Assembly (NCBI RefSeq): GCF_002213425.1
Contig: NZ_NJGV01000001.1
Span: 62,001 to 126,000 of the forward strand
Direction of reading: 5' to 3'
Source: Herbaspirillum aquaticum
GTDB taxonomy: Bacteria; Pseudomonadota; Gammaproteobacteria; Burkholderiales; Burkholderiaceae_D
DNA: 64,000 nt
Shown: one piece after another, positions 2,435 through 28,347 of the stretch
Numbering within the stretch: the stretch's first letter is position 1
How the letters are laid out: every line of letters starts with the position of its first letter
Notes under the pieces: generated by a model
Database searches by the model: none
Seen by the model: only the letters and a program-made list of their open reading frames with translations
What the model was told of the DNA's origin: nothing
Position numbers and translations under genes: made by a program

Positions 2435-2454
2435 GATGGTCTCCAGACAAGTTG

Positions 2455-2484
2455 AAAAAAAAAGCCGGCAGCAGCGCTGCCGGC
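2455..2484 (-). terminator. Rho-independent terminator of the cyd operon
   Basis: On the minus strand GCCGGCAG (2484-2477), a 5-nt loop and CTGCCGGC (2471-2464) form a perfect 8-bp GC stem followed by nine T residues. It lies 40 bases after the cydX stop and only about 20 bases before the DUF2867 start codon, so it should separate the two or act as an attenuator. Confidence 0.9.
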
Positions 2485-2523
2485 CTTGCTCACGCGGTCA
2501 CGCGATCACGCGATCCCTTGAGC

Positions 2524-2694
2524 TCACCTGCCGTTGCGCCGCTGTTTTTCCGCCGCACGGGCGCTGGCAAAGCGCTCATGGGTTTCCTCGGCCTTGCGAC
2601 GGCCGAAGGCATAGTTGGCTTCCAGCCACATGACGTTGATGATGCCGAAGGCCAGGGCCAGTCCGATGCCGAGTATCCAAGCGAAATACCACAT
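2524..2694 (-). CDS. cydX: Cytochrome bd oxidase small subunit CydX
   Basis: A 56-residue ORF (start MWYFAWILGIGLALAFGIIN) matching the CydX/YbgT family. CydX is a single-span inner-membrane peptide that stabilises the haem b595/d site of cytochrome bd. The segment MWYFAWILG is the family hallmark, and the helix (residues 2-22) is followed by a charged cytoplasmic tail rich in Arg, Glu and Lys, somewhat longer than the 37-residue E. coli protein. A GAGGAG ribosome site precedes the ATG at 2694. It is the last gene of the operon, 36 bp after cydB, directly before the terminator. Confidence 0.92.
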   Translation of the reverse strand: MWYFAWILGIGLALAFGIINVMWLEANYAFGRRKAEETHERFASARAAEKQRRNGR

Positions 2695-2730
2695 GATGTT
2701 CTCCTCGTTGCAGTTTGCGATTGCGCGTAA

Positions 2731-3870: not shown

Positions 3871-3897
3871 TCTGCTTTCCTCATTTCTTCTGGTGGC

Positions 3898-6480: not shown

Positions 6481-6707
6481 CGGATGAGAATGACGCGCGC
6501 CCGGCGCGGATGCGCGGGCGAGGGCCGTCGGCAGGCTCAGGGGCTGGCAGGGGTGAAGGCGCTTATTAACGTCTCTTCATGACGACATCGCGTCTTGTGG
6601 ACTTCCCGGTTCCACAAGGACGCAGCCCTGTTCAGCATCGTGTTGCGCTGCATGAATGTATTTTCACGCTTTCCTACAAAGCCAGAAGGATTTGGCTGAT
6701 AGAAAAC

Positions 6708-6721
6708 CTGATGCGGATCAA
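6708..6721. promoter_or_regulatory. FNR/Anr-like box
   Basis: Read on the minus strand it is TTGATCCGCATCAG, matching the FNR/Anr consensus TTGAT-N4-ATCAA at 9 of 10 defined positions. It lies in the 522-bp gap between the leftward cyd operon (starting at 6380) and the rightward permease gene (6909), and oxygen control of bd oxidase would make sense. It is 330 bp from the regulator ATG, so a long leader or action on the rightward gene is also possible. Apart from this box and the two inverted repeats I see nothing gene-like in 6381-6902. Confidence 0.45.
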
Positions 6722-6908
6722 ATAAGGTGCAGTTGCAGCTCAGCCGTAGCGCGACAAAGTGCCGAAAACGACATTTTTGCCACTCTGCTGATGAAGTGCT
6801 GGGTGCAAGCGTCTGCCGGTTCCTTCATCCCGGTAGCGAGGGGCTGGCGGGCAGGGGTTGCCCGTGGCGCGCGCGCACGGCGTCCTCTTTTTCCAAGGGT
6901 GAATGTTT

Positions 6909-8066
6909 ATGCTGGGTTTCGATTTCCGCGTGGCCAGGATCGTCTGGACCGTCTTCCTGGTGGCCTTGCTGCTCTATGTCACCTATACCATTTCGGCCAC
7001 CGTGCTGGTGCTGGTGTTTGCCGTCTTCTTCAGTTACCTGGTCTATCCGCTGGTGGAGCAGGTCGAGCGCGTGCGCCCGGCCAAGGTGCCGCGGGCGGTC
7101 TCCATTGCGGTGGTGTTCGTGCTGGCCATCGGCATCGTGGCAGCGGTGGCGACCATCTTCGGCGCGCGCATCCAGGAGGAAGCCGTGCGCCTGTCCGAGC
7201 AACTGCCGGCGCTGCTGCGCTCCAATGATGCGGTTTCCAAGATTCCGCTGCCGGGCTTCGCCGAACCGCTGCGCGCCCGTATCCTGGGCTTCATCCGCGA
7301 CCAGCTCGCCAACGGCACTGACCAGGCCATGCCGCTGGCCAAGCAGTTCGGCGTGGGGGTGATGCATGCGGCCAGCAACCTCATCTACCTGGTGCTGGTG
7401 CCGGTGATCAGTTTCCTGCTCATCAAGGAAGCGCCGGCCATGCGCGATGAAATCCTCTCCTGGATGAACCGTTCCAACCGCAAGCTGTGGGATGGCATCA
7501 TCAAGGATCTCGACGTGCTGCTCTCGCGCTATGTGCGCGCGCTGCTGTTCCTCTCCATTGCCACCTTCGTCGCCTACAGCATCGCCTTCTCGCTCATGGG
7601 CGTGCCCTACGCCATGCTGCTGGCGGGCCTGGCGGCGGTGCTGGAATTCATTCCCTTTGCCGGTCCGCTGGCCGCCAGCGCGGCCGCCTTGGTGGTGGCC
7701 GGTTTCAGCGGCTATGACCACCTGCTGTGGCTGGTGGGCTTCATCGTGGCCTATCGGGTGTTCCAGGATTACGTACTGAATCCTTACCTGATGAGCGAGG
7801 GCGTGGAAGTGAGCCCGCTGATGGTGATCCTGGGCCTGCTGGCTGGCGACCAGCTGGGCGGGGTGGCGGGCATCTTCCTGTCGGTACCGGTGATGGCCGC
7901 CTTGAAGATCATCTTCACGCGCGCCTCGGCAGCCCAGAAGGCAAGACGTGCGGCCGAAGCCCGCGAGGCAGAACTGGCGGCCCAGGCTGCGCAGGAGGCC
8001 GTCAGTGCGGCGCAAGCGCCGGTCCCTGCACCGGCAGCGTTGCCGCCGACGGGAAGAACAGGCTGA
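6909..8066 (+). CDS. AI-2E family transporter (UPF0118 / PerM-TqsA superfamily)
   Basis: A polytopic membrane protein of about 385 residues. Hydrophobic helices near the N-terminus are followed by an amphipathic central part and a C-terminal helix cluster (YAMLLAGLAAVLEFIPFAGPLAASAAALVV) with the family's FIP-G-P motif, ending in an Ala-rich polar tail. Members export autoinducer-2 or act as Na+/H+ antiporters or permeases, and the substrate cannot be predicted. Two in-frame ATGs (6903, 6909) follow AAGGG; the second has better spacing. The last 65 bases overlap the end of the convergent sensor-kinase gene. Confidence 0.85.
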   Translation: MLGFDFRVARIVWTVFLVALLLYVTYTISATVLVLVFAVFFSYLVYPLVEQVERVRPAKVPRAVSIAVVFVLAIGIVAAVATIFGARIQEEAVRLSEQLPALLRSNDAVSKIPLPGFAEPLRARILGFIRDQLANGTDQAMPLAKQFGVGVMHAASNLIYLVLVPVISFLLIKEAPAMRDEILSWMNRSNRKLWDGIIKDLDVLLSRYVRALLFLSIATFVAYSIAFSLMGVPYAMLLAGLAAVLEFIPFAGPLAASAAALVVAGFSGYDHLLWLVGFIVAYRVFQDYVLNPYLMSEGVEVSPLMVILGLLAGDQLGGVAGIFLSVPVMAALKIIFTRASAAQKARRAAEAREAELAAQAAQEAVSAAQAPVPAPAALPPTGRTG

Positions 8067-14886: not shown

Positions 14887-16212
14887 ATGAACCACATTCC
14901 TTCCCCCGGCCGCGCGCGCGTCCCGCTGTCTTCCCCGATCCTGCCGTATCAGCGCTGGCGTAGCCGGCTGCTTGCGGTGATGGCGGCTTCCCTGGGGGTG
15001 CTGAGCCTGCCGGCCGGTGCCGTGACCCTGGGCGAGCTGGTCAAGCAGGCCGCCTTCAACAACCCTTCTGCGGTTGCACGTCAACGCGCCGTCGACGCCG
15101 CCGCCGAGGGCATCTCGTCGGCCCGGTGGCAATTCTTCCCCACGCCATCGATGTCGGTCGAACGCGCGGGCGTGACCAGTTCGCGCGACATTTCTTACAG
15201 CGGCGACGACACCGTGCTCACCCTGCGCTTGCAGCAGACCCTGTGGTCAGGCGGCCGGCTGACGGCCCAGCTGGAACAGGCCGGGTTCAACCACGAGTCT
15301 GCCGAGGAAGCCCTGCGTGAACAGCGCTTCCGCCTGGCCGAGCAGGTCATTTCGCAATACAGCCTGTGGGTACGTTCGGACCTGGCCACGGAAGCCAACC
15401 AGAAGAACCTGAAGGCGCTGGAAGACTTCCTCGCACAGAGCCAGCGCCGCGAGAAGGAGGGCGCTGCGGCGCGGGTCGACGTGACCCTGGTGCGGGGCCG
15501 CCGCGACCAGGCCCAGACCGATCTGCTGGCCTCCAAGGCCAGCCGCCAGTCGGCGCGACTGCAGCTGGAACAGCTGGTGGGCCTGCCCCTGAGTGATGAA
15601 GAACTGCGCGCCGATGTGAACCGGATGAAAGTCAATGACGACCTCCCCGCGCTGACCGACAGCATGCTTCAGAGCAGCCCGTTGCTCAAGCGCCTGCGGG
15701 CCGATGCCAAGGTGCAGGAGGCAGCCATCCAGATCCGCAGCGCCTCCTACTGGCCGGAAGTCTATGCCCGCCTGGAGCACCAGCGCGGCAATTTCAGCGT
15801 GCCCCACACACCCAACGCCAACCGCGCCTTCATCGGCATGCAGATGCAGCTGGGCGCCGGGCTTTCGCTGGGTTCCGAGGTCTCCGCTGCCAAGGGACGC
15901 TATCAAGCAGCCTTGCTGGCGGTGGATGCCGCGCGGCTGGAGCTGATCTCGCAGATCGCTGCGACCTACACCGAATACCAGCAGGCCGAGGCGCGTTCGC
16001 GCAACCTGGAAGAGGTCAGCCTGTCGGCCGACGAGGTGCTGGCGTCTTATACGCGCCAGTATCTCTCCGGCCGGCGCTCCTGGCTGGACGTCATGAATGC
16101 CGTGCGCGAAGTGGTGCAGACCGAACTGCAGAAGGCCGACGTCACCGCCATGATCATCGCCGACGGCCGCAAGCTGCAACTATGGGCTTACGGGCTGGAC
16201 CAGGTGCGCTGA
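14887..16212 (+). CDS. TolC-family outer-membrane channel of the type I secretion locus
   Basis: A 441-residue outer-membrane efflux protein of the TolC/LapE class. A basic N-terminus and hydrophobic stretch (about residues 26-45, ending SLPAGA) form the signal peptide. Two related halves rich in long helices follow, with the typical LQQTLWSGGRLTAQLEQA and LRLEQ-like segments and a conserved second-half repeat (GLSLGSEVSAAKGRYQAALLAVDAARLELISQI region). It should form the trimeric exit duct for the ABC/HlyD pair at 18-21 kb. An EAL gene follows 60 bp downstream, so the two may be co-transcribed. Confidence 0.88.
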   Translation: MNHIPSPGRARVPLSSPILPYQRWRSRLLAVMAASLGVLSLPAGAVTLGELVKQAAFNNPSAVARQRAVDAAAEGISSARWQFFPTPSMSVERAGVTSSRDISYSGDDTVLTLRLQQTLWSGGRLTAQLEQAGFNHESAEEALREQRFRLAEQVISQYSLWVRSDLATEANQKNLKALEDFLAQSQRREKEGAAARVDVTLVRGRRDQAQTDLLASKASRQSARLQLEQLVGLPLSDEELRADVNRMKVNDDLPALTDSMLQSSPLLKRLRADAKVQEAAIQIRSASYWPEVYARLEHQRGNFSVPHTPNANRAFIGMQMQLGAGLSLGSEVSAAKGRYQAALLAVDAARLELISQIAATYTEYQQAEARSRNLEEVSLSADEVLASYTRQYLSGRRSWLDVMNAVREVVQTELQKADVTAMIIADGRKLQLWAYGLDQVR

Positions 16213-16272
16213 GGCGATCCTGACCAGGGGGAAGGGTGCCACCGCGGGCGCCCTCATGTCGCTGTGGCGAGA

Positions 16273-17130
16273 ATGAACATGAACAAAAAAGCGCATTTCA
16301 AGCGCGCCATCCAGCGCAATGAATTCATCGTCGTCTATCAGCCCATCGTGGCGCTGGCCGATGGCAGCTGCACGGGGGCCGAGGTGCTGGTCCGCTGGCA
16401 GCGCGAAGATGGTGCGCTGCTGGGGCCGGACCGTTTCTTGCCGGATGCCCAGCGTCATGGCTACCTGGCGGCCATCACCGACCTGGTGCTGGCGCAGACC
16501 CTCGCCGACATGGCGCCGATCCTGCGCAGCCATCCTGGGCTGCATGTGGCGGTGAATATCCCGGCGCAGGACATCAACAGCGGACGCATCCTGAAGGTGA
16601 TCGAGCACCACCTGGCCGGGGCCAGCGTCGCGCCGCGCCAGCTCTGGCTGGAAATCACCGAGGGCAGCAGCATGGAGACCGCCGCCTGCAGAAGCGTCAT
16701 GGAACAGTTGCGGCGCAACGGACATCTGCTCGCCCTGGATGATTTCGGCACGGGATATTCCTCCCTGCGCTACCTGCACGAATTGCCCTGCGACGTCCTC
16801 AAGCTGGATCGTTCCTTTGTGACCAGCATCGGTACCGAACTGCCACCGCATCCGGTGCTCGGCTGCATCATCGACCTGGCGCGCAAGCTCAAGCTGAAGA
16901 TCGTGGCAGAAGGAGTGGAAACGGCGGCGCAGGCGCGCTATCTGGAAAAGCAAGCCGTCGACTACGCCCAGGGATGGCACTACGCGCGGCCCATGCTGGC
17001 AGCCGAATTTGCCCGTCATTGCGGGATCCACGCTTTGCTGTCTTCAGCTCCTGCGGCGCCGGCGGTGCAGGGTGGGCCGCTGTCGGTCCTGGCGCTGGAC
17101 CCGTTGGCGGCCCCTGTCTCAGCAGACTGA
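16273..17130 (+). CDS. EAL-domain cyclic-di-GMP phosphodiesterase
   Basis: A 285-residue stand-alone EAL domain. All main catalytic motifs are seen: the EAL variant EVL (Glu37 in GAEVLVRW), the Asn in VNIP, the Glu in LEITE, DDFGTGYSSLRYL, the Lys in LKLDRSF, AEGVET and QGWHYARPM. It is therefore probably an active c-di-GMP hydrolase. There is no sensor or membrane segment, and the C-terminal 40 residues are Ala/Pro-rich. The ATG at 16273 follows a GGCGAGA site; GTG at 16264 and ATG at 16279 are alternatives. It sits between the TolC-like gene and the ABC transporter operon, which suggests local c-di-GMP control of the secreted surface protein. Confidence 0.88.
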   Translation: MNMNKKAHFKRAIQRNEFIVVYQPIVALADGSCTGAEVLVRWQREDGALLGPDRFLPDAQRHGYLAAITDLVLAQTLADMAPILRSHPGLHVAVNIPAQDINSGRILKVIEHHLAGASVAPRQLWLEITEGSSMETAACRSVMEQLRRNGHLLALDDFGTGYSSLRYLHELPCDVLKLDRSFVTSIGTELPPHPVLGCIIDLARKLKLKIVAEGVETAAQARYLEKQAVDYAQGWHYARPMLAAEFARHCGIHALLSSAPAAPAVQGGPLSVLALDPLAAPVSAD

Positions 17131-17931
17131 TGTCGGCGGCCTGGGCGGTGCGGTCAGGCGGCGGTGCGAGCCGGTTTCTTCTTGCGGATGAGTCTTCCTT
17201 TTGCGTTGCTTACGTGTTTCCGAAACGCGCTGGAAACTAATGCTGTAGATGTCATCCGATTCCCCCACCATCGGACAATATTTAATCTTCAATTTGTTAG
17301 ATAAAGTGGTTCCCGCGTCGCTGTTCATGGTCTAGCAGAGACGCTGTCACCAGTGCTGACTGCCTGTCGGATAATCAGGTGGCGAATGGCAACAAGCTCC
17401 CCTCGAATGCAATTTTGTTCGAGGGGAGTTTTATTTTTAAAGCATTGGTTTTAAAAGAATTTTATTGATTGGTGCCTTCCTTTGATCTGTGGGAAAGAAG
17501 AGGTCTTCATTTCTCTTCAACGACAAGAAGTCCGCGCGTCATTTCCTTCCTCTCAGATTTCATCGTGGTTCAGAAAGATTCGTCATTTACTTAGTTTTCT
17601 GGTGCGATGAAATATTTCCAAAATGAACTAAAGGACAATTAAAAATTTCTATATTTTCAAAGATCATGTGCCTCATTGACGATCTGCCGCAGCGCCTGAA
17701 TCCGGACTTGATCTCCCTCGGTTTTGCCCGTTTCTGCCGCATGGCGAAGCACCAACGTTGACGTGATTCTGGTCGTTTCCGATATCGCGTCACGCATCGT
17801 CCCAGGGGTTTCCTCCCGCTTTTCGCTCTCACTGTCGGTCAAGCCGAGTACGTCCGAAGACGCGCCATCGACAGTCCTTCCCGAGAAGGAAGGCCGATCG
17901 TCGCTACTGATATCAAACCAAACGAATCGCC
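17131..17931. other. AT-rich intergenic leader of the type I secretion operon
   Basis: About 800 bp without a convincing gene, clearly more AT-rich than its surroundings, especially 17400-17660. It contains the terminator at 17397-17438, a GGACAATTAA word at 17633-17642 also found upstream of the TolC-like gene, and TATATT at about 17649, a possible -10 element. Such composition is common for silenced or heavily regulated surface-protein promoters. A 61-codon minus-strand ORF at 17657-17842 is open but unsupported. Confidence 0.6.
17397..17438 (+). terminator. Strong terminator in the leader of the ABC transporter operon
   Basis: CTCCCCTCGAA (17397-17407) pairs perfectly with 17418-17428 across a 10-nt loop and is followed by a T-rich tract. 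It lies 267 bp beyond the EAL stop, so it ends either the tolC-EAL transcript or a separate short RNA. A smaller hairpin, TCCGAT/ATCGGA, is at 17255-17275. Confidence 0.85.
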
Positions 17932-18051
17932 ATGAGAATGAATCTTCCTCCCCGTTCCAGTTCTCCGCCTCTTGCCGCTATCGAGGTCGTGGCTGGTGTC
18001 GCCACCCTGCAGGCCAGCTGCCTATTCCGCCTGGCAGGAGGCTTGCAATGA
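17932..18051 (+). CDS. Possible 39-residue leader peptide coupled to the ABC transporter gene
   Basis: A short ORF starting MRMNLPPRSSSPPLAAIEVV whose TGA stop (18049-18051) overlaps the transporter's ATG (18048-18050) as ATGA. This layout would allow translational coupling, but the ORF has no good ribosome site and no recognisable domain, and the transporter has its own strong AGGAGG. It is therefore a weak call that a ribosome profile could decide. Confidence 0.3.
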   Translation: MRMNLPPRSSSPPLAAIEVVAGVATLQASCLFRLAGGLQ

Positions 18052-20147
18052 GTGAACTGGCTTCTTCCCTCTCATGGGCCGTGACGACCGCAGCACGGCG
18101 CCACGGCGTGGTGATCGACAGCGTCCGGCTCAATGCCGCCATCACGCAAGCGATGGTCAAGAATGGCGTGGCGGCGATGGACATCAACAGCCTCTGTGCT
18201 GCCCTGGGCCTGCCCAAGTCGCAGCATCTGGCCAAGCCGGACCGCGCGCAGCTGCCCATGCTGGGGGTGGTGGGCGAACGTGGCTGGGGCGTGATCGTCG
18301 ACCAGCGTCCGGATGGACGCTGGATCTTCATCAGTGAAGAGGGCCATGCCCTGGTCAGCGACAGCGAACTGGGGGAGGGCGCTTACAAGCTCGATTTCTC
18401 TGCCCTCGGCAACAAGCCGGACCAGCACGGCTTTGAACGCGTCTTCAAGGAAGCACTCGCCGAGTACCGGCCCATTCTCCTGGAAGTGGTCATCGCCTCG
18501 GTGGTGATGAGCGTCATTGCGCTGGGCGCATCGATCTTTTCCATGCAGGTCTATGACCGCGTCATTCCGACGCACGGTGTGGCCACGCTGATCGTGCTGG
18601 CCATCGGCGTCTCGCTGGCCATCATTTTCGAGCTGGGCATGAAGTTCGCGCGCTCCCACATCATGGACAACGTGGTCTCCGGCCTCGATGCCAAGCTGTC
18701 GCAGGCGCTCTTCGAACGCTTGCTGTCGGTTCGCGTGGACCAGTTGCCAGGTTCGGTCGGCAGCCTGGCCGGGCAGTTGCGCGGATATGAACAAATCCGC
18801 TCCTTCTATACTTCACAAACGCTCTTCACCCTGGTCGACTTGCCGCTGGGCCTGCTGTTCGTGCTGGTGATCGCCTTCATCGCCAGCCCCTGGATGGCGA
18901 TGGTGCCGACCGTATTCGGGCTGGCCGCCATCGGCATCGGCTACCTCTCCAATCGCAAGGTGGTGCGCCTGGCCGACAAGAGCGCGGCCGCCTCCAACCT
19001 CAAGACCGGCCTGCTGGTGGAGACGGTGGAGGGGGTGGAGACCATCAAGTCCGGTTCCGGCGGCTGGAAGTTCCTCTCGCGCTGGATCGACGTGAGCGCC
19101 GAATCCATCCGCAGCGACATGGCCATGCGCGCCATTGGCGACCATGCCGGCTACATCGCTGCCATGTTGCAGCAACTGAGCTATTCCACCACCGTCATCG
19201 TCGGTTCCTTCCTGGTCATCAACGGCCAGATCACCATGGGGGCGCTGATCGCCTGCTCCATCCTGGGCGGCCGCATTTTGGCCCCGGTGGCCATGATTCC
19301 CGGCCTGATGGTGCAGCGTGCGCATACCAAGGCCACCCTGGCCGGACTGGAAAAGATCTACGCGCTGCAGACTGACCAGGGCAATGAACGCCAGTTGACG
19401 CCAGATACCTTGCGCGGCGAATTCCGCGTCGAAGAGGTCAAGTTCACCTATGCCGGCAGCCTGCTCAATGCCATGAGCATCGACCAGCTCAGCATCAAGG
19501 CCGGCGAGCGGGTCGCCATCCTGGGACCGATCGGCGCCGGCAAGTCCACCATCCTGCGCCTGCTGTCCGGTCTTTACCGGCCGCAGCAAGGCCGCATCCT
19601 GATCGATGGCCTGGACATGGCCAACATCAACCGCCTGACGCTGAACCAGCACATCGGCTATCTCCAGCAAGACCACCGCCTCTTCGTGGGCAGCTTGCGC
19701 GAGAACCTCCTGATCGGCCTGCCCGATCCGGGTGACGAAGTCCTGCGCCAGGTGATGGAGCGGACCGGCCTGTTGCGCCTGGTCTCGGCCCATCCCAAGG
19801 GACTGGACCTGCCGATCCAGGAGGGCGGACGCGGCCTCTCCGGCGGCCAGCGCCAGCTGGTGGCGTTCACCCGCCTGCTGCTGTGCCGTCCTGACATCTT
19901 CCTGCTCGACGAGCCCACCGCATCCATGGATGAAGAACTGGAGCGTCACTGCCTGGGCGTGCTCAATGAAGAAATCAGCGGTGGCCGCACCCTGGTGGTA
20001 GTGACCCACAAGCCTGCCTTCCTGCCCATGGTCGAACGCGTGATCGTGGTGGTGGGCAACCGCATCGTGCTCGACGGCCCGCGCGATGCCGTCCTGGCCC
20101 GTCTGCGCGGTGATACCGCCGATGCGGGCAATGCCGTCGTCAGCTGA
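18048..20147 (+). CDS. Type I secretion ABC transporter (LapB/SiiF/HlyB type)
   Basis: A 699-residue fused permease/ATPase. Residues about 1-115 form a C39-peptidase-like domain lacking the catalytic Cys-His pair, as in RTX and adhesin exporters; transmembrane helices fill about 140-430; the nucleotide-binding domain has Walker A GPIGAGKST (about 493), signature LSGGQRQ (about 597), Walker B IFLLDEPTASMD and the H-loop VVTHK. It exports unfolded substrate using a C-terminal signal, here presumably the product of 23117-26104. The frame stays open upstream to 17724, but AGGAGG at 18037-18042 fixes the ATG at 18048. The HlyD-type gene follows after 8 bp. Confidence 0.93.
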   Translation: MSELASSLSWAVTTAARRHGVVIDSVRLNAAITQAMVKNGVAAMDINSLCAALGLPKSQHLAKPDRAQLPMLGVVGERGWGVIVDQRPDGRWIFISEEGHALVSDSELGEGAYKLDFSALGNKPDQHGFERVFKEALAEYRPILLEVVIASVVMSVIALGASIFSMQVYDRVIPTHGVATLIVLAIGVSLAIIFELGMKFARSHIMDNVVSGLDAKLSQALFERLLSVRVDQLPGSVGSLAGQLRGYEQIRSFYTSQTLFTLVDLPLGLLFVLVIAFIASPWMAMVPTVFGLAAIGIGYLSNRKVVRLADKSAAASNLKTGLLVETVEGVETIKSGSGGWKFLSRWIDVSAESIRSDMAMRAIGDHAGYIAAMLQQLSYSTTVIVGSFLVINGQITMGALIACSILGGRILAPVAMIPGLMVQRAHTKATLAGLEKIYALQTDQGNERQLTPDTLRGEFRVEEVKFTYAGSLLNAMSIDQLSIKAGERVAILGPIGAGKSTILRLLSGLYRPQQGRILIDGLDMANINRLTLNQHIGYLQQDHRLFVGSLRENLLIGLPDPGDEVLRQVMERTGLLRLVSAHPKGLDLPIQEGGRGLSGGQRQLVAFTRLLLCRPDIFLLDEPTASMDEELERHCLGVLNEEISGGRTLVVVTHKPAFLPMVERVIVVVGNRIVLDGPRDAVLARLRGDTADAGNAVVS

Positions 20148-20155
20148 GGCCCGCC

Positions 20156-21331
20156 ATGACCATGACCTTGAAAATGAATAAACCTGATTCCCGCCACCCC
20201 CTGGTGTCGGCGCGCTGGATGCTGCGCCTGTCCATGCTCAGTGTCGTCTTGCTGCTGGTCTGGGCGGCCGTGAGCCCCATCGACCAAGTCACCCGGGCGC
20301 AAGGCCAGGTGATCGCCGTTTCCCGTACGCAGTCGGTGCAGGCACCTGACGGCGGACCGGTCAAGCAGATCCTGGTCAAGGAGGGCGAGGCCGTCAAGCA
20401 GGGGCAGCTGCTGATGGTGCTGGAGCAGGACCGTATCCAGACCTCGCTCAACGACAGCCGCGCCAAGGTGGCCGCATTGCGCATCAGCCTGGCACGCCTG
20501 CGGGCCGAAGTCTACGGACAGCCGTTGGTGTTCGAGCCGGACCTGCTGGACTACAAGGAATACATCGCCAACCAGAAAGACCTCTACGTCAAGCGCAAGG
20601 CCCTGATCGACCAGGATCTGCAAGCCTTGCATGACATGCTCGGACTGGCCTCGCACGAGCTGGAGATGAACCGCAACCTGGAGAAGACCGGCGACGTCGG
20701 CCGCGCTGACGTGCTGCGCCTGCAGCGCAACGTGGCCGACATCCGCGCCCAGATCAACAACAAGCGCAACAAGTATTTCCAGGAAGCCCTGGTCGACATG
20801 ACCAAGGTCCAGGAAGACCTCAACACCCAGCGCGAGCAGCTCGAAGACCGCAGCCAGGTCCTGGAGCATACCGAGCTGCGGGCGCCGGCCGATGGCGTGG
20901 TCAAGAACATCAAGCTCACCACCATCGGCGGCGTGGTCCGTCCGGGCGACGTGGTCATGGAGATCCTGCCGGTGGACAACCTCATCGTCGAGGTGAAGGT
21001 TTCTACCGCCGACTCCGCCTACGTCAAGACCGGCCAGCAGGCCAACGTGAAGCTTGATGCCTATGACTATTCGATCTACGGCACCCTCAATGGCCAGGTC
21101 TACGTCAGTCCCGATACCTTGCTGGACGAAACGCGCCAGGGCGCCGTGCCGTACTACCGCGTGCACATCGCGCTGGAGGACGCCGTCTTCAAGGGCCAGA
21201 AAGCCAGTGCCATCCATGTCAAGCCCGGCATGACCGCCACCGTCGAAATCAAGGCCAACACCCGTACCGTCCTGTCCTTCTTGGTCAAGCCTATCGCCAA
21301 GACACTTCAGGAATCGATGGGCGAGCGCTAA
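20156..21331 (+). CDS. Type I secretion membrane-fusion protein (HlyD/LapC/SiiD type)
   Basis: A 391-residue periplasmic adaptor: a short cytoplasmic start, one transmembrane helix (about residues 23-42), a split lipoyl/barrel-sandwich domain (VQAPDGGPVKQILVKEGEAVKQGQ and ELRAPADGVVKNIKLTTIGGVV), a long coiled coil between them (about 95-235) and a C-terminal beta-barrel part (MTATVEIKANTRTVLSFLVKPI). It links the ABC transporter to the TolC-like channel. The gene is 8 bp after the transporter with a GAGG site. Confidence 0.93.
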   Translation: MTMTLKMNKPDSRHPLVSARWMLRLSMLSVVLLLVWAAVSPIDQVTRAQGQVIAVSRTQSVQAPDGGPVKQILVKEGEAVKQGQLLMVLEQDRIQTSLNDSRAKVAALRISLARLRAEVYGQPLVFEPDLLDYKEYIANQKDLYVKRKALIDQDLQALHDMLGLASHELEMNRNLEKTGDVGRADVLRLQRNVADIRAQINNKRNKYFQEALVDMTKVQEDLNTQREQLEDRSQVLEHTELRAPADGVVKNIKLTTIGGVVRPGDVVMEILPVDNLIVEVKVSTADSAYVKTGQQANVKLDAYDYSIYGTLNGQVYVSPDTLLDETRQGAVPYYRVHIALEDAVFKGQKASAIHVKPGMTATVEIKANTRTVLSFLVKPIAKTLQESMGER

Positions 21332-21380
21332 GCAGCCAACCCGCGATTGCCCCACCTCTACCTACTACAAGGAAAATCCA

Positions 21381-23000
21381 ATGAAACCCATCACCCTGCC
21401 CAAGCAACCCGCTCCCGATCCGGCCTATCTGCTGCCCTGGGCGGGCACGCTGGCGGTCTTCGCCATGTACGTGCTGGTCAACATCTGGCTCTACGAGCGC
21501 GTGATGCAGCTGATCCAGCACGTGGCCAACCCCTTCTTCGTCATGCTGCTGGTCGCCGTCACCGTTTGCGGCCAGTTGATGACCATCTGGCAGACCTGGC
21601 GCTTTCTGGGAGAGGCACGCTCCCTTGATCTTCTGACCCGGCGCCTGAGGTCGTCGGAAAACCAGGACCGCAAGACCAGGCTGGTCAATCTGGACGACAG
21701 CCTCAACAGCATTCCTGCCGGCCAGGACGTGCGTGCACTGTTCCAGAATCTGCTGCGCAAGGATGGCGAGGCGCTGGTCCATGATCCGGCGCGCCTGCAG
21801 CACCAGGCCGACAACTTCGCCCAAAGCATCCAGCGCCGTACCACCCTGGTCCAGTACATCGCCAACACCCTGATCGGCCTTGGCCTGTTCGGCACCTTCC
21901 TGGGCCTGATCGTGACCCTCAAGGAAGTGGCTGCCCTCATTGGCCTGTTCGGCGTGGCCGGCACCGAAGGCAGCGACATGATGGCGCAGTTCTTCCAGAA
22001 GATGAGCGGCCCCCTGGCCGGCATGGGCGACGCCTTCGTCGCCTCGCTGCTGGGCCTGGGCGGTTCCATCGTCAACAACGTGCAGCTGCTGGCTACCCGC
22101 AAGCTGCAACGTGTGCTGTGCAGCCGTGCCGAAGCCGCTTACATGAGCGTAGCCGATGCGGTCTGCGTTCCCGCCCAAGGAGAGGCAGGGGCGCAGCCTT
22201 CCCAGGCCGATTTCAATGACGGCAAGGTCCAGCTGCAGGAAATTCGTGCCATCCGCGCCGAAATGCATCAGCAGACCGAAGCCATCCTGCTGGCCTCATC
22301 CCGCATGCGCCAGGCCAGCGAGCCGCTGGTCAAGTGCCTGGAGGCACTGGAAATGCGCACCGCCGCCCAGGCCCAGGATCGCCCGCAACTGGAGCAGATC
22401 GCCGCCACCATGGAGCAGCGCCTGGCGGCCATGGTGCACAAGTTCGAAGACACGCAGCAGGCGCATCAGGGCTTGCTGGCCAGCGTGCGCGCCATGGAAG
22501 TCCATCTGGCCAGCCTGGCCGTCGGTCAGAGCGAAGTGAACGACGACCAGCGCAGCATTTCCCGCAAGCTGAGCGACCTGATCGCCGCCGCCACCCAGGA
22601 TGCCGAACTGTCACGCCAGGCCATGCGCGAGCACGCCGACAGCTTGCGCAACGGCTTGGGCCAGGATCTGCGCCAGGTCAGCGAGCTGATCGACGCAACG
22701 CTGCGCGAGCAACGCGAACAAGGGGTGGTTCTCGGTGGCATCCAGAGCAGTGCCAGTGGCGCCCAGGTGGCGGTAGAAACGGTCGGTGCGCAACTGCTGC
22801 AGCAAGGCCAGCAGCTGCAGCCACAGCTGATCGATGTGATCGCCCGTATCGACAAGCTCGATATCAACCTCGCCAGTACCGCACAGTGGGCCATCGCCGA
22901 GGCCAAGGGCCTGGCCAGCAAGCCCGAACCGCATGCGCAGCCTGCGCCGCAGCAAGAGCTGCAGCGACTTTCCGGTGACGATCCCGACAGCCATTCCTGA
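21381..23000 (+). CDS. MotA/TolQ/ExbB-like membrane protein with long helical tail (SiiB-like)
   Basis: A 539-residue protein. Four hydrophobic helices lie at about residues 18-40, 46-70, 153-178 and 200-236, and the last two (NTLIGLGLFGTFLGLIVTL; PLAGMGDAFVASLLGLGGSIVNN) look like the pore helices of the MotA/TolQ/ExbB family. Residues 260-535 are a long, largely helical Gln/Ala-rich tail that may form coiled coil in the cytoplasm, as in ZorA-like proteins. With the MotB-like protein at 26238 it could form a proton-driven stator. It lies between the HlyD-type gene and the secreted substrate, a context seen for Salmonella SiiAB. A role in energising or gating secretion or surface retention is inference. 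AAGGA ribosome site. Confidence 0.75.
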   Translation: MKPITLPKQPAPDPAYLLPWAGTLAVFAMYVLVNIWLYERVMQLIQHVANPFFVMLLVAVTVCGQLMTIWQTWRFLGEARSLDLLTRRLRSSENQDRKTRLVNLDDSLNSIPAGQDVRALFQNLLRKDGEALVHDPARLQHQADNFAQSIQRRTTLVQYIANTLIGLGLFGTFLGLIVTLKEVAALIGLFGVAGTEGSDMMAQFFQKMSGPLAGMGDAFVASLLGLGGSIVNNVQLLATRKLQRVLCSRAEAAYMSVADAVCVPAQGEAGAQPSQADFNDGKVQLQEIRAIRAEMHQQTEAILLASSRMRQASEPLVKCLEALEMRTAAQAQDRPQLEQIAATMEQRLAAMVHKFEDTQQAHQGLLASVRAMEVHLASLAVGQSEVNDDQRSISRKLSDLIAAATQDAELSRQAMREHADSLRNGLGQDLRQVSELIDATLREQREQGVVLGGIQSSASGAQVAVETVGAQLLQQGQQLQPQLIDVIARIDKLDINLASTAQWAIAEAKGLASKPEPHAQPAPQQELQRLSGDDPDSHS

Positions 23001-23116
23001 GCCGCAGTAGCAGCAGGGGCCAACGCGAAGTTGGCCCTTGCCTGTCTGGCGCGCCGGTTTCGTCACTTATTTCATTCATTACTCCTTTCATAGACCAAAG
23101 AGAAAGCACGCTTCGT

Positions 23117-26104
23117 ATGTCCAATGATCAAAACAAGGATGCAACCAACCCGATCAGCAACAAGCAATTGGGCTCTGCCCCGCTCCCGTTGATCATGCCG
23201 GTAGCCCGGCGCAGCACCGTCGCCGTCACCGGCAAGTCTGGCAAATCGGCCAAGGCTGGCCAGCGCGACAAGGACCGGCCGGAGGCTGCGCAAGACGAGC
23301 CGGTCTCCGACCTCTCGGCCATGAATGACATGAACCAGCTGACCGAAGCCGAGGCCGCTGCGCGTGCGCAGGAAAGCGCCGATGCTGCCATGTCGGTGCG
23401 CCGGGGCGAGGCGAGTGAAGAGGAGGATGAAGCCGCGCAGGATCTCGCGCGCAGTACACAGCAGGACGACGCGCGCTTGCTGCTGGCCCAGGCAGGCAGC
23501 TCTTCTTCCGGAGGCCAGGCCGCAGCCGGCCAGTCCGGCGCCGATGCTCCGGTGAGCGTCGGCGAAGAACTGCTGCGCCAGGCCGCACCCTTGCCCGGCG
23601 CGCGCGAGAAATCCGGCGCCGACTGGTTCGAGAGCATGTTCGGCAAGGACTGGAAGTTGCCACTGGCCATCGGTGGCGGCGCCTTGGCCTTGCTGGGCCT
23701 GGCCTCCCGTGGCGGTGGCGGCAGTGCGGGCAATGGCGTAACCAATGACGCGGCCGATGCGGGAAGTACCCCGGCCGTCCCCAGCAACACCTGGAATCTG
23801 ACCGTCACCCCTGCGGCTGGCAGCTTCATGGCAGGCGCCTCGGTGCGCGCCATCGCCCAGAAATGGGTCGGCGGCCAGTGGCAGGACATCACCAGCACCA
23901 CCACGGTGGACCGCTTTGGCCGCATGAGCTTGAAGGTCGACAAGACACAGGTCACCGCGCAGGACATGGTGCGCGTGGTCATCCGCGATACCGGCAGCAG
24001 CGCTGACCATCGCGATGAAGTCGCCGGCCCGCTGACCCTGGGGTCGACCGACATGGTGGCGATCATCGGCAACGTCACCTCCGACCAGCAAGTCACCGTC
24101 AACCCGCTGACCACGCTGGCGGCTGGCCGCATTGGCCAGGATCTGTCGGCGGCCAACATCGAGGCCAAGGCCGTGGCCGGCGACGGGCTGTTCGCGCACG
24201 ACATTGCAGTCTGGCCAACCAATGACATCAGCAGCATCGGTATCCGGCTCGATGGCCCGCAGCTGGACCTGCAGAAGGACAAGCTGGTCCTGGACGTGCC
24301 GCTGTCGCTCAACGCCAGCCTGGCTACGGTCAGCGGCAAGAGCATCGGCGGCGTCAACGGCTTGAGCTATGGCTATGACGCCAGCACCCATGTGCTGACC
24401 ATCAGCAAGAGCTCGGGCGCGGCCATGAGCGGACTGGATGCGCGTGCCATCGTGAAGGCCATCCAGTACCAGAACGCCACGCCGAGCGCAGGCGACCGCA
24501 GTGCCACCATCACGCTCACCGATGTGGCCGGCAACAGCAGCAATACCGGCGCGACCTGGTCGGTGGATATAACAGCACCGGCCAGCCTCACCGGCACGCT
24601 GGTGATCAACAAGCAGATCAGCTACAAGATGCTGAGCATTCCGGACATCATGGGCAGCGCCAATACGCACAACCTGCACACAGGAGAGAGCGCCGATCTC
24701 ACCAGCCTGTTGCCGGCCGGGATGACGCCGACCAGCTTCCTCTCTTCGCTCAAGGGTTTGTATACCGAATGGGGCGGCGTGACCATCACCAGCAACCCCA
24801 ATACCACCATGAACAAGTACACCACCGTGTTCTCCTTCCCGGCAGGATTCGGCATGGATACCCCGTTCAGCCTGGTGCACCAGGGGGGAGGTGCAGTCAA
24901 GGGCGAGAACTTCAAGTTCAGCTCCCCCGATGGCACGAAGTTGTTGCTCAACGCTGTGGATGGCTTCTACATCCTCAATACGGATGTGTATGCTTTCAAG
25001 GCCGGGAACATGGTACAGAGCTATGACATCGGCAATGTCCGCCTGCTGTACCAGGTCACTACGGACAACCCCAATTCGCTGCCGACCATCAATGTCAGCT
25101 ACGACGGCACCAAAGCCAGTGCAGGGGATGTGATCTCCCTGTACGAGGGCGACAAACTGCTGGGCAGCCGCATCCTCGGTACGACCGATGTCGGCAGTAC
25201 TTCAGCGACCCTGGATGTGACGGTTGCCAGCAGCCTGGCTGCCGGCAACCACGTGATCACCCCCAGGTTCAGCGATCCGGCGGGTAACGTGGTGGTTGGC
25301 AATGACATCCGGCTTGCGATCACGGGCGATGCGGTGGCGCCGGTACTGAGCAATCTGCGCGTCAATGGCGAGACGCCCGACACCCAGCCCATCAATGGCT
25401 CGGCGACGAAGTACGCCATGATCGCGGAAACGCCCACCAGTCCGGTGACCCTGTCCGGCCTGGACCAGAACCTGACCTTCTCCGGCACGGTCGGGGGGGC
25501 AGGTGCCGATGACAGCTACCTTATCTCGGTGAGCATGGGCGGCAAGGTGATCCTCTTCAACGAGGTGAAGGCAGGTGACTTCTCGCTGACCACCCCGGCC
25601 AACATCCTGGCTCCGGGCATGTATCACGACCTGACCATCACGGCGACCAATATCAGCAACGGCGTCAACAACGGTCAGACCGCCATCGTCCAGAACCAGA
25701 CACTGGGCTGGTACTGGGTGCCGCAGAAGCTCGACAGTCTGACCGGTGGTGCCGGTGACGACCAGATCCAGCTCGCAGTCACTACCGGTGGCATCAATAC
25801 CGTGATACAGACCGGCCAGGGCAAGGACACGCTGACGTTGGGCGGATTCGGGACCAACGACTCCACCAGGCTGGTGGCCACTGTCTCTGATTTCACCTTG
25901 GGACAGGACAAAGTGAAGGTCTTCGGACAAACCATCACCAAGGACAACCTCAATACCTTCGTCACGGCCTCCGCCTACAACACCAGTTCCACCAAGCTGG
26001 TGGTGGATCTGGACGGTGCCGGAGCGGGGGGCACGAGTTACACCTTGTACCTGCAGAACGTGGCCTACAACCCCGGCAATACCCATACGATCTTCGGTGT
26101 GTGA
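23117..26104 (+). CDS. RTX-tailed type I secreted surface protein (adhesin candidate)
   Basis: A 995-residue protein without a Sec signal. Order: a polar, low-complexity N-terminus (1-175); a short hydrophobic segment with Gly-rich follow-on (LPLAIGGGALALLGLAS, 181-197, then RGGGGSAG); then beta-rich, Ig-like modules (ITLTDVAGNSSNTGATWSVDI and similar, to about 860); and a C-terminal export region with one RTX nonapeptide GGAGDDQIQ (about 877-885), a degenerate second one (GQGKDTLTL) and DFTLGQDKVKVFG, typical of T1SS C-terminal target domains. It is probably exported by the adjacent ABC/HlyD/TolC system and acts at the surface. It is small for an adhesin of this type (SiiE exceeds 5,000 residues) and lacks long tandem repeats. 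The position between MotA- and MotB-like genes is striking. Confidence 0.85.
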   Translation: MSNDQNKDATNPISNKQLGSAPLPLIMPVARRSTVAVTGKSGKSAKAGQRDKDRPEAAQDEPVSDLSAMNDMNQLTEAEAAARAQESADAAMSVRRGEASEEEDEAAQDLARSTQQDDARLLLAQAGSSSSGGQAAAGQSGADAPVSVGEELLRQAAPLPGAREKSGADWFESMFGKDWKLPLAIGGGALALLGLASRGGGGSAGNGVTNDAADAGSTPAVPSNTWNLTVTPAAGSFMAGASVRAIAQKWVGGQWQDITSTTTVDRFGRMSLKVDKTQVTAQDMVRVVIRDTGSSADHRDEVAGPLTLGSTDMVAIIGNVTSDQQVTVNPLTTLAAGRIGQDLSAANIEAKAVAGDGLFAHDIAVWPTNDISSIGIRLDGPQLDLQKDKLVLDVPLSLNASLATVSGKSIGGVNGLSYGYDASTHVLTISKSSGAAMSGLDARAIVKAIQYQNATPSAGDRSATITLTDVAGNSSNTGATWSVDITAPASLTGTLVINKQISYKMLSIPDIMGSANTHNLHTGESADLTSLLPAGMTPTSFLSSLKGLYTEWGGVTITSNPNTTMNKYTTVFSFPAGFGMDTPFSLVHQGGGAVKGENFKFSSPDGTKLLLNAVDGFYILNTDVYAFKAGNMVQSYDIGNVRLLYQVTTDNPNSLPTINVSYDGTKASAGDVISLYEGDKLLGSRILGTTDVGSTSATLDVTVASSLAAGNHVITPRFSDPAGNVVVGNDIRLAITGDAVAPVLSNLRVNGETPDTQPINGSATKYAMIAETPTSPVTLSGLDQNLTFSGTVGGAGADDSYLISVSMGGKVILFNEVKAGDFSLTTPANILAPGMYHDLTITATNISNGVNNGQTAIVQNQTLGWYWVPQKLDSLTGGAGDDQIQLAVTTGGINTVIQTGQGKDTLTLGGFGTNDSTRLVATVSDFTLGQDKVKVFGQTITKDNLNTFVTASAYNTSSTKLVVDLDGAGAGGTSYTLYLQNVAYNPGNTHTIFGV

Positions 26105-26237
26105 TGGCGCTGACCTGAACCGAGATCGTAGACCCGCAAGCGCATCGGCTCCTCCAAGGGCCGATGCCTGCGCCTCGACAGAAGGACATGGCAAACAGCC
26201 ATGTCCGGTGTTTTTCAAACCAGTAGAAGGAGAAAAA

Positions 26238-27095
26238 ATGGCAGCCCCATCCGCAGATACCGATGAACAAAACTTTTGGCCCGGCTATGTCGATTCCATG
26301 GTCAACATGGTCATGTACCTGTTGCTGTTGCTGTTGATCGCCATCCTGGCCATGGCCGTGATGTACTTTTCCATACGTGCCCGAGACGAGGCCAAGGATG
26401 CCAAGGCCACCGAAATGGAGGCGCCAGGCAAACCTTTCCCCAAGGCGCTGCCCGGCCCCAATGCGCTGGCACCGGTCAGTCCCAGTGCTGAGGAACTGCA
26501 TGCCCAGATCGAGCAGATGCGCCAGACGCTCAACAACAACGAGGTCCGCTACAAGGCCGACGTGGCCGAGCTGAAGGAAAAGCTGCGCGAGAGCGACCAG
26601 CGCTTCAAGGCGTCCGGCCTGGCCAAGATCGAGAAGCCCAATCAGAAGGAGCGCGGCAACAACATGAAGTCCACGCCCGAAGCCGACCTGGCCAAGGAAG
26701 GCGCCTCCGAGCGCGTACTCAACGCCAGCGGCACGGCCGGGGCGCTGCCCACCGGCGTGGAGCAGTTTGCCTTGCGGCCCAGCGTGCTGATCGTGCGCTT
26801 CCGTCCAGGTACCGTGGACCTGAATCCGGACGAAGCCAGGCGCATGAATGAGACCTTCGTCAAGCACTTCGAATGGAACCCCGGCGTGGAACAGAACTTC
26901 ACCATTTCCTCGGCGGCCGTCGAGGGCTTGTCGGAGTCCAACCGCATGGCCTTCTATCGCGTGGTGGCGGTGCGTAACCACCTGCTGTCCATCGGTGTGC
27001 CGGCGGCCCGCATCCGCCAGCGCATCGAACCGGTCCCGGCTGCCCGCCAGAGTGGCACGGAAGGCCTGGAAATCCGTATCCAGAAAAGCGAATGA
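26238..27095 (+). CDS. MotB/OmpA-like membrane protein (SiiA-like)
   Basis: A 285-residue single-span protein. The helix (about residues 20-47) is preceded by FWPGYVDSMVNMVMY, in which Asp19 sits where MotB-type stators have their proton-binding Asp. A helical linker (90-160) leads to a C-terminal OmpA-like peptidoglycan-binding domain (VRFRPGTVDLNPDEARRM; SNRMAFYRVVAVRNHLLSIGVPAARI). It is the expected partner of the MotA-like protein at 21381, from which it is separated by the secreted-protein gene. A strong GAAGGAGA site sets the ATG at 26238; the frame is open further upstream but without domain content. Confidence 0.78.
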   Translation: MAAPSADTDEQNFWPGYVDSMVNMVMYLLLLLLIAILAMAVMYFSIRARDEAKDAKATEMEAPGKPFPKALPGPNALAPVSPSAEELHAQIEQMRQTLNNNEVRYKADVAELKEKLRESDQRFKASGLAKIEKPNQKERGNNMKSTPEADLAKEGASERVLNASGTAGALPTGVEQFALRPSVLIVRFRPGTVDLNPDEARRMNETFVKHFEWNPGVEQNFTISSAAVEGLSESNRMAFYRVVAVRNHLLSIGVPAARIRQRIEPVPAARQSGTEGLEIRIQKSE

Positions 27096-27104
27096 GGACG
27101 CCTG

Positions 27105-27497
27105 ATGTCTGACGCCGCAAGTTCCATCGAGGAAGCCCTGGTCGGCAAGACCACTTATACGCTGGACGTGACCCAGGCCGGGACCGCGCTGCGCAAGATT
27201 CCCATCGAAACCATCCGGGACGTGCGCAGCCTCGGCATCGACCTGTTGCTGGTGTTGCGCAGCGGCGGCCAGATCCTGCTGCGCGAAGGCGCGCTGGATG
27301 CGCTGGTGAACCCTGAGCGGCGCCTGGAGTTCAGTGATGGCGTACTGACGTTGCAGCAGATTTTCATGCAGAGCGAGCAGTTCGATTTCCTCAATCAATC
27401 CGGTTCCAGCCTCGGACACGACCACCCTGTGGCCGATGCCGGCGGCCGGCACTGGCCGGAGTGGGTGCCCGCTTCGCCTTATCCGTTCGGAGGTTGA
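27105..27497 (+). CDS. Small protein resembling a BapA-type prefix domain
   Basis: A 130-residue soluble protein. Residues about 18-95 (IPIETIRDVRSLGIDLLLVL, RSGGQILLREGALDAL, then LEFSDGVLTLQQIF) recall the beta-rich prefix domain found at the N-terminus of BapA/LapA-type adhesins, where a D-L-L-L-T-L-x-x-G-x-x-I pattern is typical. Here it is encoded as a separate gene 9 bp after the MotB-like gene, with a GAGGAC site. It may be a periplasmic-side or cytosolic accessory factor of the secretion locus; the homology call is tentative and no signal peptide is seen. The C-terminal 35 residues are polar and Pro/Gly-rich. Confidence 0.5.
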   Translation: MSDAASSIEEALVGKTTYTLDVTQAGTALRKIPIETIRDVRSLGIDLLLVLRSGGQILLREGALDALVNPERRLEFSDGVLTLQQIFMQSEQFDFLNQSGSSLGHDHPVADAGGRHWPEWVPASPYPFGG

Positions 27498-27499
27498 AC

Positions 27500-27886
27500 A
27501 TGGATGCGCCCATTGACAATGACAATGACAACGCGCCGGGATATGCCGTCGGCGGCAGCAAACAAGCCATCGGCGAGCGCCTCAAGGCGACGCGCCATAT
27601 GAGCGGCCTGAACCAGCGCGACTTTGCCAGTCGCCTGGGAACTTCCGGCGCCTACATCAGCTGTGTGGAATTGGGGCACAGCATGCCGGGTGGGCGTTTC
27701 CTGCGATCGCTGCACAGGGAGTTCGACGTCAACATCAACTGGTTGCTGACCGGTTTGGAACAGGAACTGCCGCCACGCCATGGCTTCCATGTCAAGGTAC
27801 TCATCGGTGATTACATCCGCGCGACAGAACGCGGCAAGGCGCTGGTGATGGCGGTAGCGAGCTTCCTGGTCGCCAGGCGCGGCTGA
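27500..27886 (+). CDS. XRE-family HTH regulator (first of a tandem pair)
   Basis: A 128-residue protein with a lambda-Cro/XRE helix-turn-helix at about residues 24-82 (IGERLKATRHMSGLNQRDFASRLGTS, then GAYISCVELGHSMPGG). The start at 27500 follows GGAGG and comes 2 bp after the stop of the prefix-like gene, so it belongs to the secretion operon. It is a paralogue of the gene at 28012, sharing the HSMPGG/KAMPGG turn and an N-WLLTG segment. The C-terminal half is short and lacks a known sensor. Likely a local regulator of the operon; target unknown. Confidence 0.8.
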   Translation: MDAPIDNDNDNAPGYAVGGSKQAIGERLKATRHMSGLNQRDFASRLGTSGAYISCVELGHSMPGGRFLRSLHREFDVNINWLLTGLEQELPPRHGFHVKVLIGDYIRATERGKALVMAVASFLVARRG

Positions 27887-28011
27887 ATATCGCCGCATTG
27901 GCCATTGCCGTGCTTGCCTTCCGGCGGCACGGGTCAGGATAGCGTCAGCAGCACCGTGGGCAACAGGGGTACGGGCGGCGCGAGCGGGTGCGTCCGTACA
28001 GAGGAGAGGAT

Positions 28012-28347
28012 ATGTTCAGTGAAGAAATCGGCGTCCGGATCAAGGAGATCCGGCTCGCCCACGGCCTCAGCCAGCGTGAGCTGGGTCAGCGCCTCAGTAC
28101 CTCCACCGGCCACATCAGCTGGCTGGAGGCCGGCAAGGCCATGCCCGGTGGCGAATTGCTGTTGCAGCTGTACCGGGAATTTGCAGTCGACCTCAACTGG
28201 CTGCTCACCGGCAGCGAGCCGGAAGTCCTGCCGCAGGAAAGCGATGCCGACGTGCGGCAGCTGATCGACCATTACTGCCGCACCGATGTGCAAGGCCGCG
28301 AGATCATCCGCAGCCTGGCCAGCTATGCCGGCCGCACTGGTACCTGA
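28012..28347 (+). CDS. XRE-family HTH regulator (second of a tandem pair)
   Basis: A 111-residue XRE protein; HTH at about residues 4-62 (IGVRIKEIRLAHGLSQRELGQRLSTS, then GHISWLEAGKAMPGG). It aligns over nearly its full length with the gene ending at 27886, so a local duplication is likely. GAGGAGAGGA directly precedes the ATG at 28012; the open frame extends to 27988 but no ribosome site fits there. The 125-bp gap from its paralogue could hold a promoter. Target unknown. Confidence 0.8.
   Translation: MFSEEIGVRIKEIRLAHGLSQRELGQRLSTSTGHISWLEAGKAMPGGELLLQLYREFAVDLNWLLTGSEPEVLPQESDADVRQLIDHYCRTDVQGREIIRSLASYAGRTGT

What the first reader, a model, noticed from the sequence alone, without database searches (positions are those of the whole stretch)
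14887..28347. Type I secretion locus with built-in MotA/MotB-like proton-channel pair: SPI-4-like design with a small substrate
Seen: TolC-like, EAL, ABC (inactive C39), HlyD-type, MotA/TolQ-like with long helical tail, RTX-tailed 995-aa protein, MotB/OmpA-like with Asp19 at the stator position, prefix-like protein and two XRE genes. Known: Salmonella SPI-4 siiABCDEF pairs T1SS and giant adhesin SiiE with the MotAB-like channel SiiAB. Inference: this is a distinct lineage of stator-coupled type I secretion, with the substrate gene between the two stator genes, a c-di-GMP phosphodiesterase inside the locus, its own regulators and a substrate about five times smaller than SiiE. The proton flow may drive export, retention or release of the surface protein.
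Basis: partly seen in the sequence, partly recalled or inferred. Interest (0 to 1): 0.85.

Follow-up and report, generated by a model that had tools for sequence, protein, structure and literature searches.

The report
Collapsed giant-adhesin secretion locus with stator
A soil and plant bacterium carries a protein-export machine with a built-in proton-driven motor pair like the one Salmonella uses for a giant adhesin, but its small cargo protein is most likely a leftover made when a large deletion joined the two ends of a pair of giant adhesin genes that some relatives still have.

Summary

The "small substrate" design is not supported. In three relatives the same interval holds two giant adhesins: A1 (3,127–3,215 aa; two pieces in one draft) and A2 (7,224–7,250 aa, 726–734 kDa, larger than SiiE). 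The 995-aa protein joins the N-terminus of A1 (about 343 residues in G019 numbering) in frame to the last 646 residues of A2 at a 4-base microhomology; about 28 kb is missing, and three 1,000-residue interior pieces match nowhere in this assembly. Seven of ten genomes with the locus carry different deletions; only this one of the seven keeps every machinery gene. Best reading: a SiiAB-type stator-coupled T1SS for giant adhesins, recurrently collapsed; here a complete machine with a chimeric mini-adhesin.

The parts
14887..16212 (+). TolC-type outer membrane channel
   Evidence: Pfam OEP 5.6e-44; TIGR01844 3e-37, under its cut-off
16264..17130 (+). EAL-domain c-di-GMP phosphodiesterase-like protein (DDFGTG and EGVET motifs seen in the sequence; their meaning is recalled)
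   Evidence: Pfam EAL 3.5e-65; no EAL ORF in the G020 locus
17394..17431 (+). terminator-like hairpin between the tolC-EAL and ABC-onward genes
   Evidence: 16-pair stem plus T run; shuffles give 1.7 on average, so a consensus match only
18048..20147 (+). type I secretion ABC exporter (LssB type)
   Evidence: TIGR03375 4e-197, 656.7 bits against a cut-off of 693.1 (on 18036-20147)
20156..21331 (+). HlyD-type periplasmic adaptor
   Evidence: TIGR01843 1.7e-86, above its cut-off
21381..23000 (+). MotA/ExbB/ZorA-like channel protein with a long helical C-terminal part
   Evidence: ZorA1 1.3e-7; GLGLFGTFLGLIVTLK and PLxGMGxAFVASL invariant in 22 aligned sequences; ExbB/ZorA fold matches
23117..24167 (+). 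5' part of the 995-aa gene: N-terminal module of adhesin A1
   Evidence: 59% identical to residues 1-342 of the 3,127-aa A1 of G019
24164..24167 (.). deletion junction, 4-base microhomology GCCA; about 28.2 kb missing relative to G019
24164..26104 (+). 3' part of the 995-aa gene: C-terminus of adhesin A2
   Evidence: 85% identical to residues 6598-7243 of the 7,243-aa A2 of G019
26238..27095 (+). MotB/SiiA-like stator subunit: one membrane helix with Asp19, helical linker, peptidoglycan-binding domain (about residues 172-285)
27105..27497 (+). stand-alone prefix-domain protein, 41% identical over 80 residues to the N-terminus of the G019 A2
   Evidence: its own function unknown
27500..27886 (+). 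XRE-type regulator 1
   Evidence: HTH_19 4.1e-12 (on 27494-27886)
28012..28347 (+). XRE-type regulator 2, 44% identical to regulator 1
   Evidence: HTH_31 4.6e-10 (on 27988-28347)

Best explanation
This is a SiiAB-type, stator-coupled type I secretion system for giant surface adhesins, seen here after its cargo genes collapsed. Shown by sequence: a complete TolC-HlyD-ABC exporter; a MotA-like and a MotB/SiiA-like gene flanking the cargo interval; in three relatives that interval holds two giant adhesins, A1 and A2; in the window the N-terminal module of A1 is fused in frame to the C-terminus of A2. Inferred by analogy with SiiAB: the ABC protein drives C-terminus-first export with ATP; the glycine-rich hydrophobic N-terminal module halts the adhesin in the channel; the MotA/MotB pair, anchored to peptidoglycan, uses proton flow to hold or release it. 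The 995-aa chimera keeps an N-terminal module and a C-terminal end, so it may still be exported as a short surface protein, but nothing shows that it was selected to be short.
Against: Proton conduction, assembly and export cannot be tested here. MotA is under the Pfam threshold and MotB has no related Pfam match. No sequence comparison with SiiA or SiiB was made; only the SiiA crystal fold was matched, and the MotA model is of middling confidence (mean pLDDT 66.8). The window's MotB has two extra Leu in its membrane helix that 27 of 27 aligned homologues lack, so the stator may be impaired. The 995-aa junction was not seen in a second assembly (the 18 hits have other junctions or none), so a join error cannot be wholly excluded. 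No Pfam family matches the first 4,889 residues of the G019 A2.
Confidence: 0.85

Rival explanations
1. A genuine small-substrate design: the 995-aa protein is the native cargo of a distinct lineage.
For: The ORF is open, in frame and next to a complete machine. In two other Burkholderiales genomes a MotA/MotB-linked T1SS has a cargo ORF of 969 and 1,052 aa, so short cargo is possible in this kind of system.
Against: The two halves belong to two separate giant genes in G019, G020 and G013; six other genomes have deletions with other ends, and protein P0071, 98% identical over the A2 part, has ABC fused to A2 instead.
Confidence: 0.06
2. Assembly error: the strain has giant adhesins and the contig was joined wrongly.
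For: Draft of 67 contigs; repetitive giant genes are hard to assemble (inference). The junction was not found in a second assembly.
Against: Only four bases are shared at the join; the three interior pieces tested are absent from the whole assembly; the 2,658-aa adhesin of the second system assembled in the same genome; two single-contig genomes, G043 and G049, also carry deletions; a 430-contig draft, G013, holds an unbroken 7,250-aa A2.
Confidence: 0.08
3. A ZorAB-like phage-defence motor next to a T1SS by accident.
For: The best MotA profile is ZorA1, 1.3e-7, and MotA has a long helical part after the membrane region.
Against: The ZorB match to MotB is E 0.25; no other Zorya-like gene was recognised among the ten genes scanned with Pfam and NCBIfam (PADLOC was run on four of them); conserved linkage is with T1SS genes; the periplasmic domain fits SiiA best.
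Confidence: 0.03

Closest known systems
Salmonella SPI-4 siiABCDEF (SiiAB proton channel, SiiCDF T1SS, SiiE adhesin)
   Same: T1SS plus a MotA/MotB-type pair; in three relatives a giant adhesin with Ig-like domains; peptidoglycan-binding domain of the SiiA fold; acidic residue in the membrane helix of the MotB-like protein.
   Different: Gene order; two giant adhesins, plus a third protein of 945-1,064 aa in two genomes, between the stator genes; A2 (726-734 kDa) exceeds SiiE (595 kDa); EAL, prefix-domain and two XRE genes beside it; cargo collapsed in the window. Whether SiiB has such a long tail was not checked.
ZorAB of Zorya phage defence
   Same: MotA-like protein with a long helical tail; profile and fold matches.
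   Different: No other Zorya-like gene recognised in the locus; linked to a type I exporter.
BapA-prefix / LapA-type T1SS adhesins
   Same: LssB-type ABC exporter; N-terminal prefix-like domain then a glycine-rich hydrophobic stretch; c-di-GMP gene nearby (the LapA comparison is partly recalled).
   Different: The BapA-prefix profile (NF033677) matches only other adhesins of this and a related genome, weakly and under its cut-off (E 0.00032-0.096); it matched neither the window's prefix gene nor the G019 and G020 A2 N-termini. No LapG-type protease recognised in the locus; MotA/MotB pair present.

Membership tests
SPI-4 SiiAB-type stator-coupled T1SS | TolC, HlyD and ABC components of a type I exporter | tested here: met
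SPI-4 SiiAB-type stator-coupled T1SS | SiiB-like MotA/ExbB channel protein | tested here: met
   ZorA profile 1.3e-7, ExbB/ZorA folds, invariant motifs; Pfam MotA_ExbB only 0.0043, under cut-off
SPI-4 SiiAB-type stator-coupled T1SS | SiiA-like protein: one membrane helix with an acidic residue and a peptidoglycan-binding domain | tested here: met
SPI-4 SiiAB-type stator-coupled T1SS | Peptidoglycan-binding arginines equivalent to SiiA R162 and R167 | tested here: inconclusive
   R236 and R241 invariant with the same spacing of five and the VIA ranges fit; no residue-level alignment seen
SPI-4 SiiAB-type stator-coupled T1SS | Giant Ig-repeat adhesin as cargo | tested here: not met
   Not met in the window (995 aa, no Pfam family). 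In G019, G020 and G013 A2 has 7,224-7,250 aa; Ig-like domains were seen in the G019 A1 and in the last 2,354 residues of its A2, none in its first 4,889
SPI-4 SiiAB-type stator-coupled T1SS | C39-like domain at the ABC N-terminus | tested here: inconclusive
   TIGR01846 aligns from residue 15; no Pfam C39 match
SPI-4 SiiAB-type stator-coupled T1SS | Proton conduction controls cargo retention | not testable with these tools
   needs experiment
SPI-4 SiiAB-type stator-coupled T1SS | Sequence homology to SiiA/SiiB | not tested
   no Sii sequence was fetched; the MotB profiles did not list the SiiA chain among PDB sequences
Zorya (ZorAB) | ZorA and ZorB profile matches | tested here: inconclusive
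   ZorA1 1.3e-7, ZorB1 0.25
Zorya (ZorAB) | Partner gene zorC/D or zorE beside the pair (defining genes recalled) | tested here: not met
   the genes of 14887-28347 are T1SS, EAL, cargo, prefix-domain and XRE genes by Pfam and NCBIfam; PADLOC was run on four of them
LapA/LapG/LapD system | LapG protease and LapD receptor | not tested
   none recognised in the locus; the rest of the genome was not searched

The most novel reading that the evidence does not exclude
The locus behaves as a deletion-prone contingency locus: strains repeatedly collapse a stator-coupled giant-adhesin system by short-homology deletions that often stay in frame (8 of 13 junctions; 7 of 13 if one uncertain junction is counted out), and some products, such as this 995-aa chimera beside a complete machine, are used as short exported adhesins.
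Probability: 0.15. Interest if true: 0.7.

Novelty: new variant of a known kind. Interest (0 to 1): 0.5.

Why it matters
In the papers whose passages I saw, SiiAB is the stator pair tied to type I secretion (PMC12204202 lists it beside MotAB, TolQR, ExbBD and ZorAB), and how its proton flow controls the adhesin is called unclear (PMC12607715). Herbaspirillum offers relatives outside Salmonella, up to three MotA/MotB-linked loci in one genome (G019), and natural strains with the same kind of machine but giant, chimeric or missing cargo, so the role of the stator can be compared with cargo size. It also warns that a protein read from one genome can be a deletion fusion: several database proteins that join an exporter gene to the adhesin look like such products.

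Tried and rejected
Small-substrate design: rejected, see above. Assembly artefact: tested by searching three missing pieces in the whole assembly and judged unlikely. Zorya defence: considered, no partner gene recognised. Programmed in-frame deletion: 8 of 13 junctions in frame gives one-sided p = 0.035 against one third, and 7 of 13 gives p = 0.10. The 13 junctions were picked by hand from the hit lists; five have an unaligned stretch of 6 to 524 bases at the join; in G012 the second junction counts as in frame only by the continuous ORF, not by the ungapped phase; repeat hits inside A2 were dropped. So this is suggestive only. Protein-level fusions were left out of that test because protein databases favour open fusions. 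Profile searches of MotB alignments against PDB sequences gave nothing useful. Literature: eight searches, seen as listings, gave no title or abstract start that describes this locus; the library holds open-licence papers only. Passages, not whole texts, were seen of PMC6272769, PMC12607715, PMC12204202 and PMC3093359; the last, an H. seropedicae genome paper, mentions adhesins and haemagglutinins and has no occurrence of 'type I secretion'. The MAG of L037 has MotB and prefix gene but no MotA match; the record is 2.5 Mb with completeness not given, so absence shows little. The joint MotA profile found nothing in G049, a genus member.

Full report
What is there. Pfam and NCBIfam confirm the TolC, EAL, ABC (closest to the LssB type), HlyD and XRE genes. 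A terminator-like hairpin at 17394-17431 separates tolC-EAL from ABC onward, but such hairpins occur 1.7 times on average in shuffled sequence. The window lies in a 5.42-Mb, 67-contig genome; names of homologues and of related records place it in Herbaspirillum.

Linkage to type I secretion. A second-type MotA hit (24-31% identity) occurs in 26 of 34 genus genomes (counted from the rows), the window's genome among them. Twelve such loci from 11 genomes were read: 11 have TolC-MotB-HlyD-MotA-ABC-adhesin in order, and L031 has all but ABC in the fetched stretch. These had been fetched because MotB matched, or in one case the prefix domain. In the window's genome the second system has a 2,658-aa cargo. 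Among 398 genomes of the order, 5 match the joint MotA profile at 1e-10 (own included). Of the other four, G058, G105 and G212 have MotA beside a MotB-like gene and T1SS genes, and in G033 no T1SS relative was recognised. The close MotB family is rare: 2 of 399 genomes of the order at 1e-15, own and one genus member.

The cargo. The 995-aa gene is a chimera. In G019 (one contig) the order is TolC-EAL-ABC-HlyD-MotA-A1 (3,127 aa)-A2 (7,243 aa)-MotB-prefix-XRE-XRE. G020 (one contig) has A1 of 3,215 aa and A2 of 7,224 aa but no EAL ORF between TolC and ABC. G013 (draft) has A2 of 7,250 aa and A1 in two ORFs. G020 and G013 also have a third protein of 1,064 and 945 aa between A1 and A2; its C-terminus resembles that of A1, and the G013 copy aligns to G019 A1 2337-3119 at 32%. 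The window protein aligns at 59% to A1 1-342 and at 85% to A2 6598-7243 of G019. The join shares only GCCA, and about 28.2 kb of G019 is missing. The interior pieces A1 343-1342, A2 600-1599 and A2 3001-4000 of G019 have no match at E 0.001 in the window's whole assembly, whereas G019, G020 and G013 match all three.

Recurrent collapse. At least 10 of 34 genus genomes have the locus, whole or in part. Seven (G000, G043, G049, G008, G011, G012, G018) carry deletions with different ends: for example EAL joined to A2 in G049, TolC to A2 in G012, and HlyD to MotA to A2 in G043. G018 is an 87%-complete draft whose contig starts at HlyD, so its upstream genes were not seen. The protein database adds more, such as ABC 1-522 or 1-221 to A2, TolC 1-386 to A2, A1 to A2, MotA to MotB and MotA to XRE2; P0071, 98% identical to the window over its A2 part, has ABC fused to A2. 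Of the seven, only the window keeps TolC, ABC, HlyD, MotA, MotB and prefix genes whole. Orphan A2-like adhesins elsewhere follow suit: by open-frame length, 4 of 5 copies in genomes with a giant A2 exceed 3,600 aa (5044, 3663, 7938, 6486; the exception is 544), against 0 of 6 hits (660, 810, 324, 507, 183, 98; 0 of 5 without the 98-residue one) in genomes with deletions (one-sided Fisher p 0.015 and 0.024). The rows are few and not independent of ancestry. The 98-residue hit in G008 lies beside a remnant with a 712-aa open frame.

Selection. dN/dS is 0.06-0.10 for ABC, HlyD and MotB, 0.12-0.15 for TolC, 0.26 for MotA, 0.10-0.22 for the prefix gene, 0.19-0.23 for the A2 C-terminus and 0.37 for the A1 N-terminus (one to three genome pairs each). 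So the machine was under constraint; most of that history may predate the deletions. A two-codon CTGTTG expansion in the MotB membrane helix is found in the window but in none of 27 aligned homologues, which may hint at relaxed constraint.

How it most likely works. Reviews state that SiiE is exported C-terminus first, is held in the exporter, and that SiiA and SiiB form a proton channel controlling retention; loss of siiA and siiB leaves secretion into the medium intact but lowers invasion (PMC6272769 and PMC12607715, passages). By analogy, the ABC protein here would export A1 and A2, the N-terminal hydrophobic module would plug the channel, and the pair would use proton flow to hold or release the adhesin. 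Every step after 'the genes are there' is inference. The EAL protein may link release to c-di-GMP but is not in every locus with giant cargo. The stand-alone prefix protein may compete with or cap the adhesin N-terminus; this is a guess.

Verdict. A SiiAB-type stator-coupled T1SS, in an arrangement with two giant adhesins between the stator genes, recurrently collapsed in this genus; the reported small substrate is most likely a deletion product. Small cargo does exist in two distant relatives (969 and 1,052 aa), so a role for the chimera cannot be excluded.

Noticed in passing
window 26319-26336: Three CTGTTG units add two leucines to the MotB membrane helix; 27 of 27 aligned homologues lack them.
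   Followed up: partly
L016 8143-15487 and L043 1089-9065 (window's genome, contig C38): A second, complete-looking T1SS with its own MotA/MotB pair and a 2,658-aa cargo.
   Followed up: yes
L031 8495-19901 (G019): A third MotA/MotB-linked locus in one genome: TolC, MotB, HlyD, MotA and a cargo ORF of at least 1,994 aa, without ABC in the fetched stretch.
   Followed up: partly
L059 11726-14168 (window's genome, contig C11): A decayed orphan A2-like adhesin in two frames (657 and 207 aa); G019 and G020 have orphan copies of 5,044 and 3,663 aa. Whether they sit at the same site was not tested.
   Followed up: partly
L073 10635-13544 and L074 6073-9231 (G058, G105): MotA/MotB-linked T1SS with a cargo ORF of only 969 and 1,052 aa in another Burkholderiales genus.
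   Followed up: partly
L055 (G020) and L056 (G013), between A1 and A2: A third protein of 1,064 and 945 aa with a C-terminus like that of A1, possibly a third cargo.
   Followed up: partly
L037 8377-11097: In a Burkholderiales MAG, MotB and prefix gene follow an adhesin tail, with no MotA match in the MAG.
   Followed up: partly
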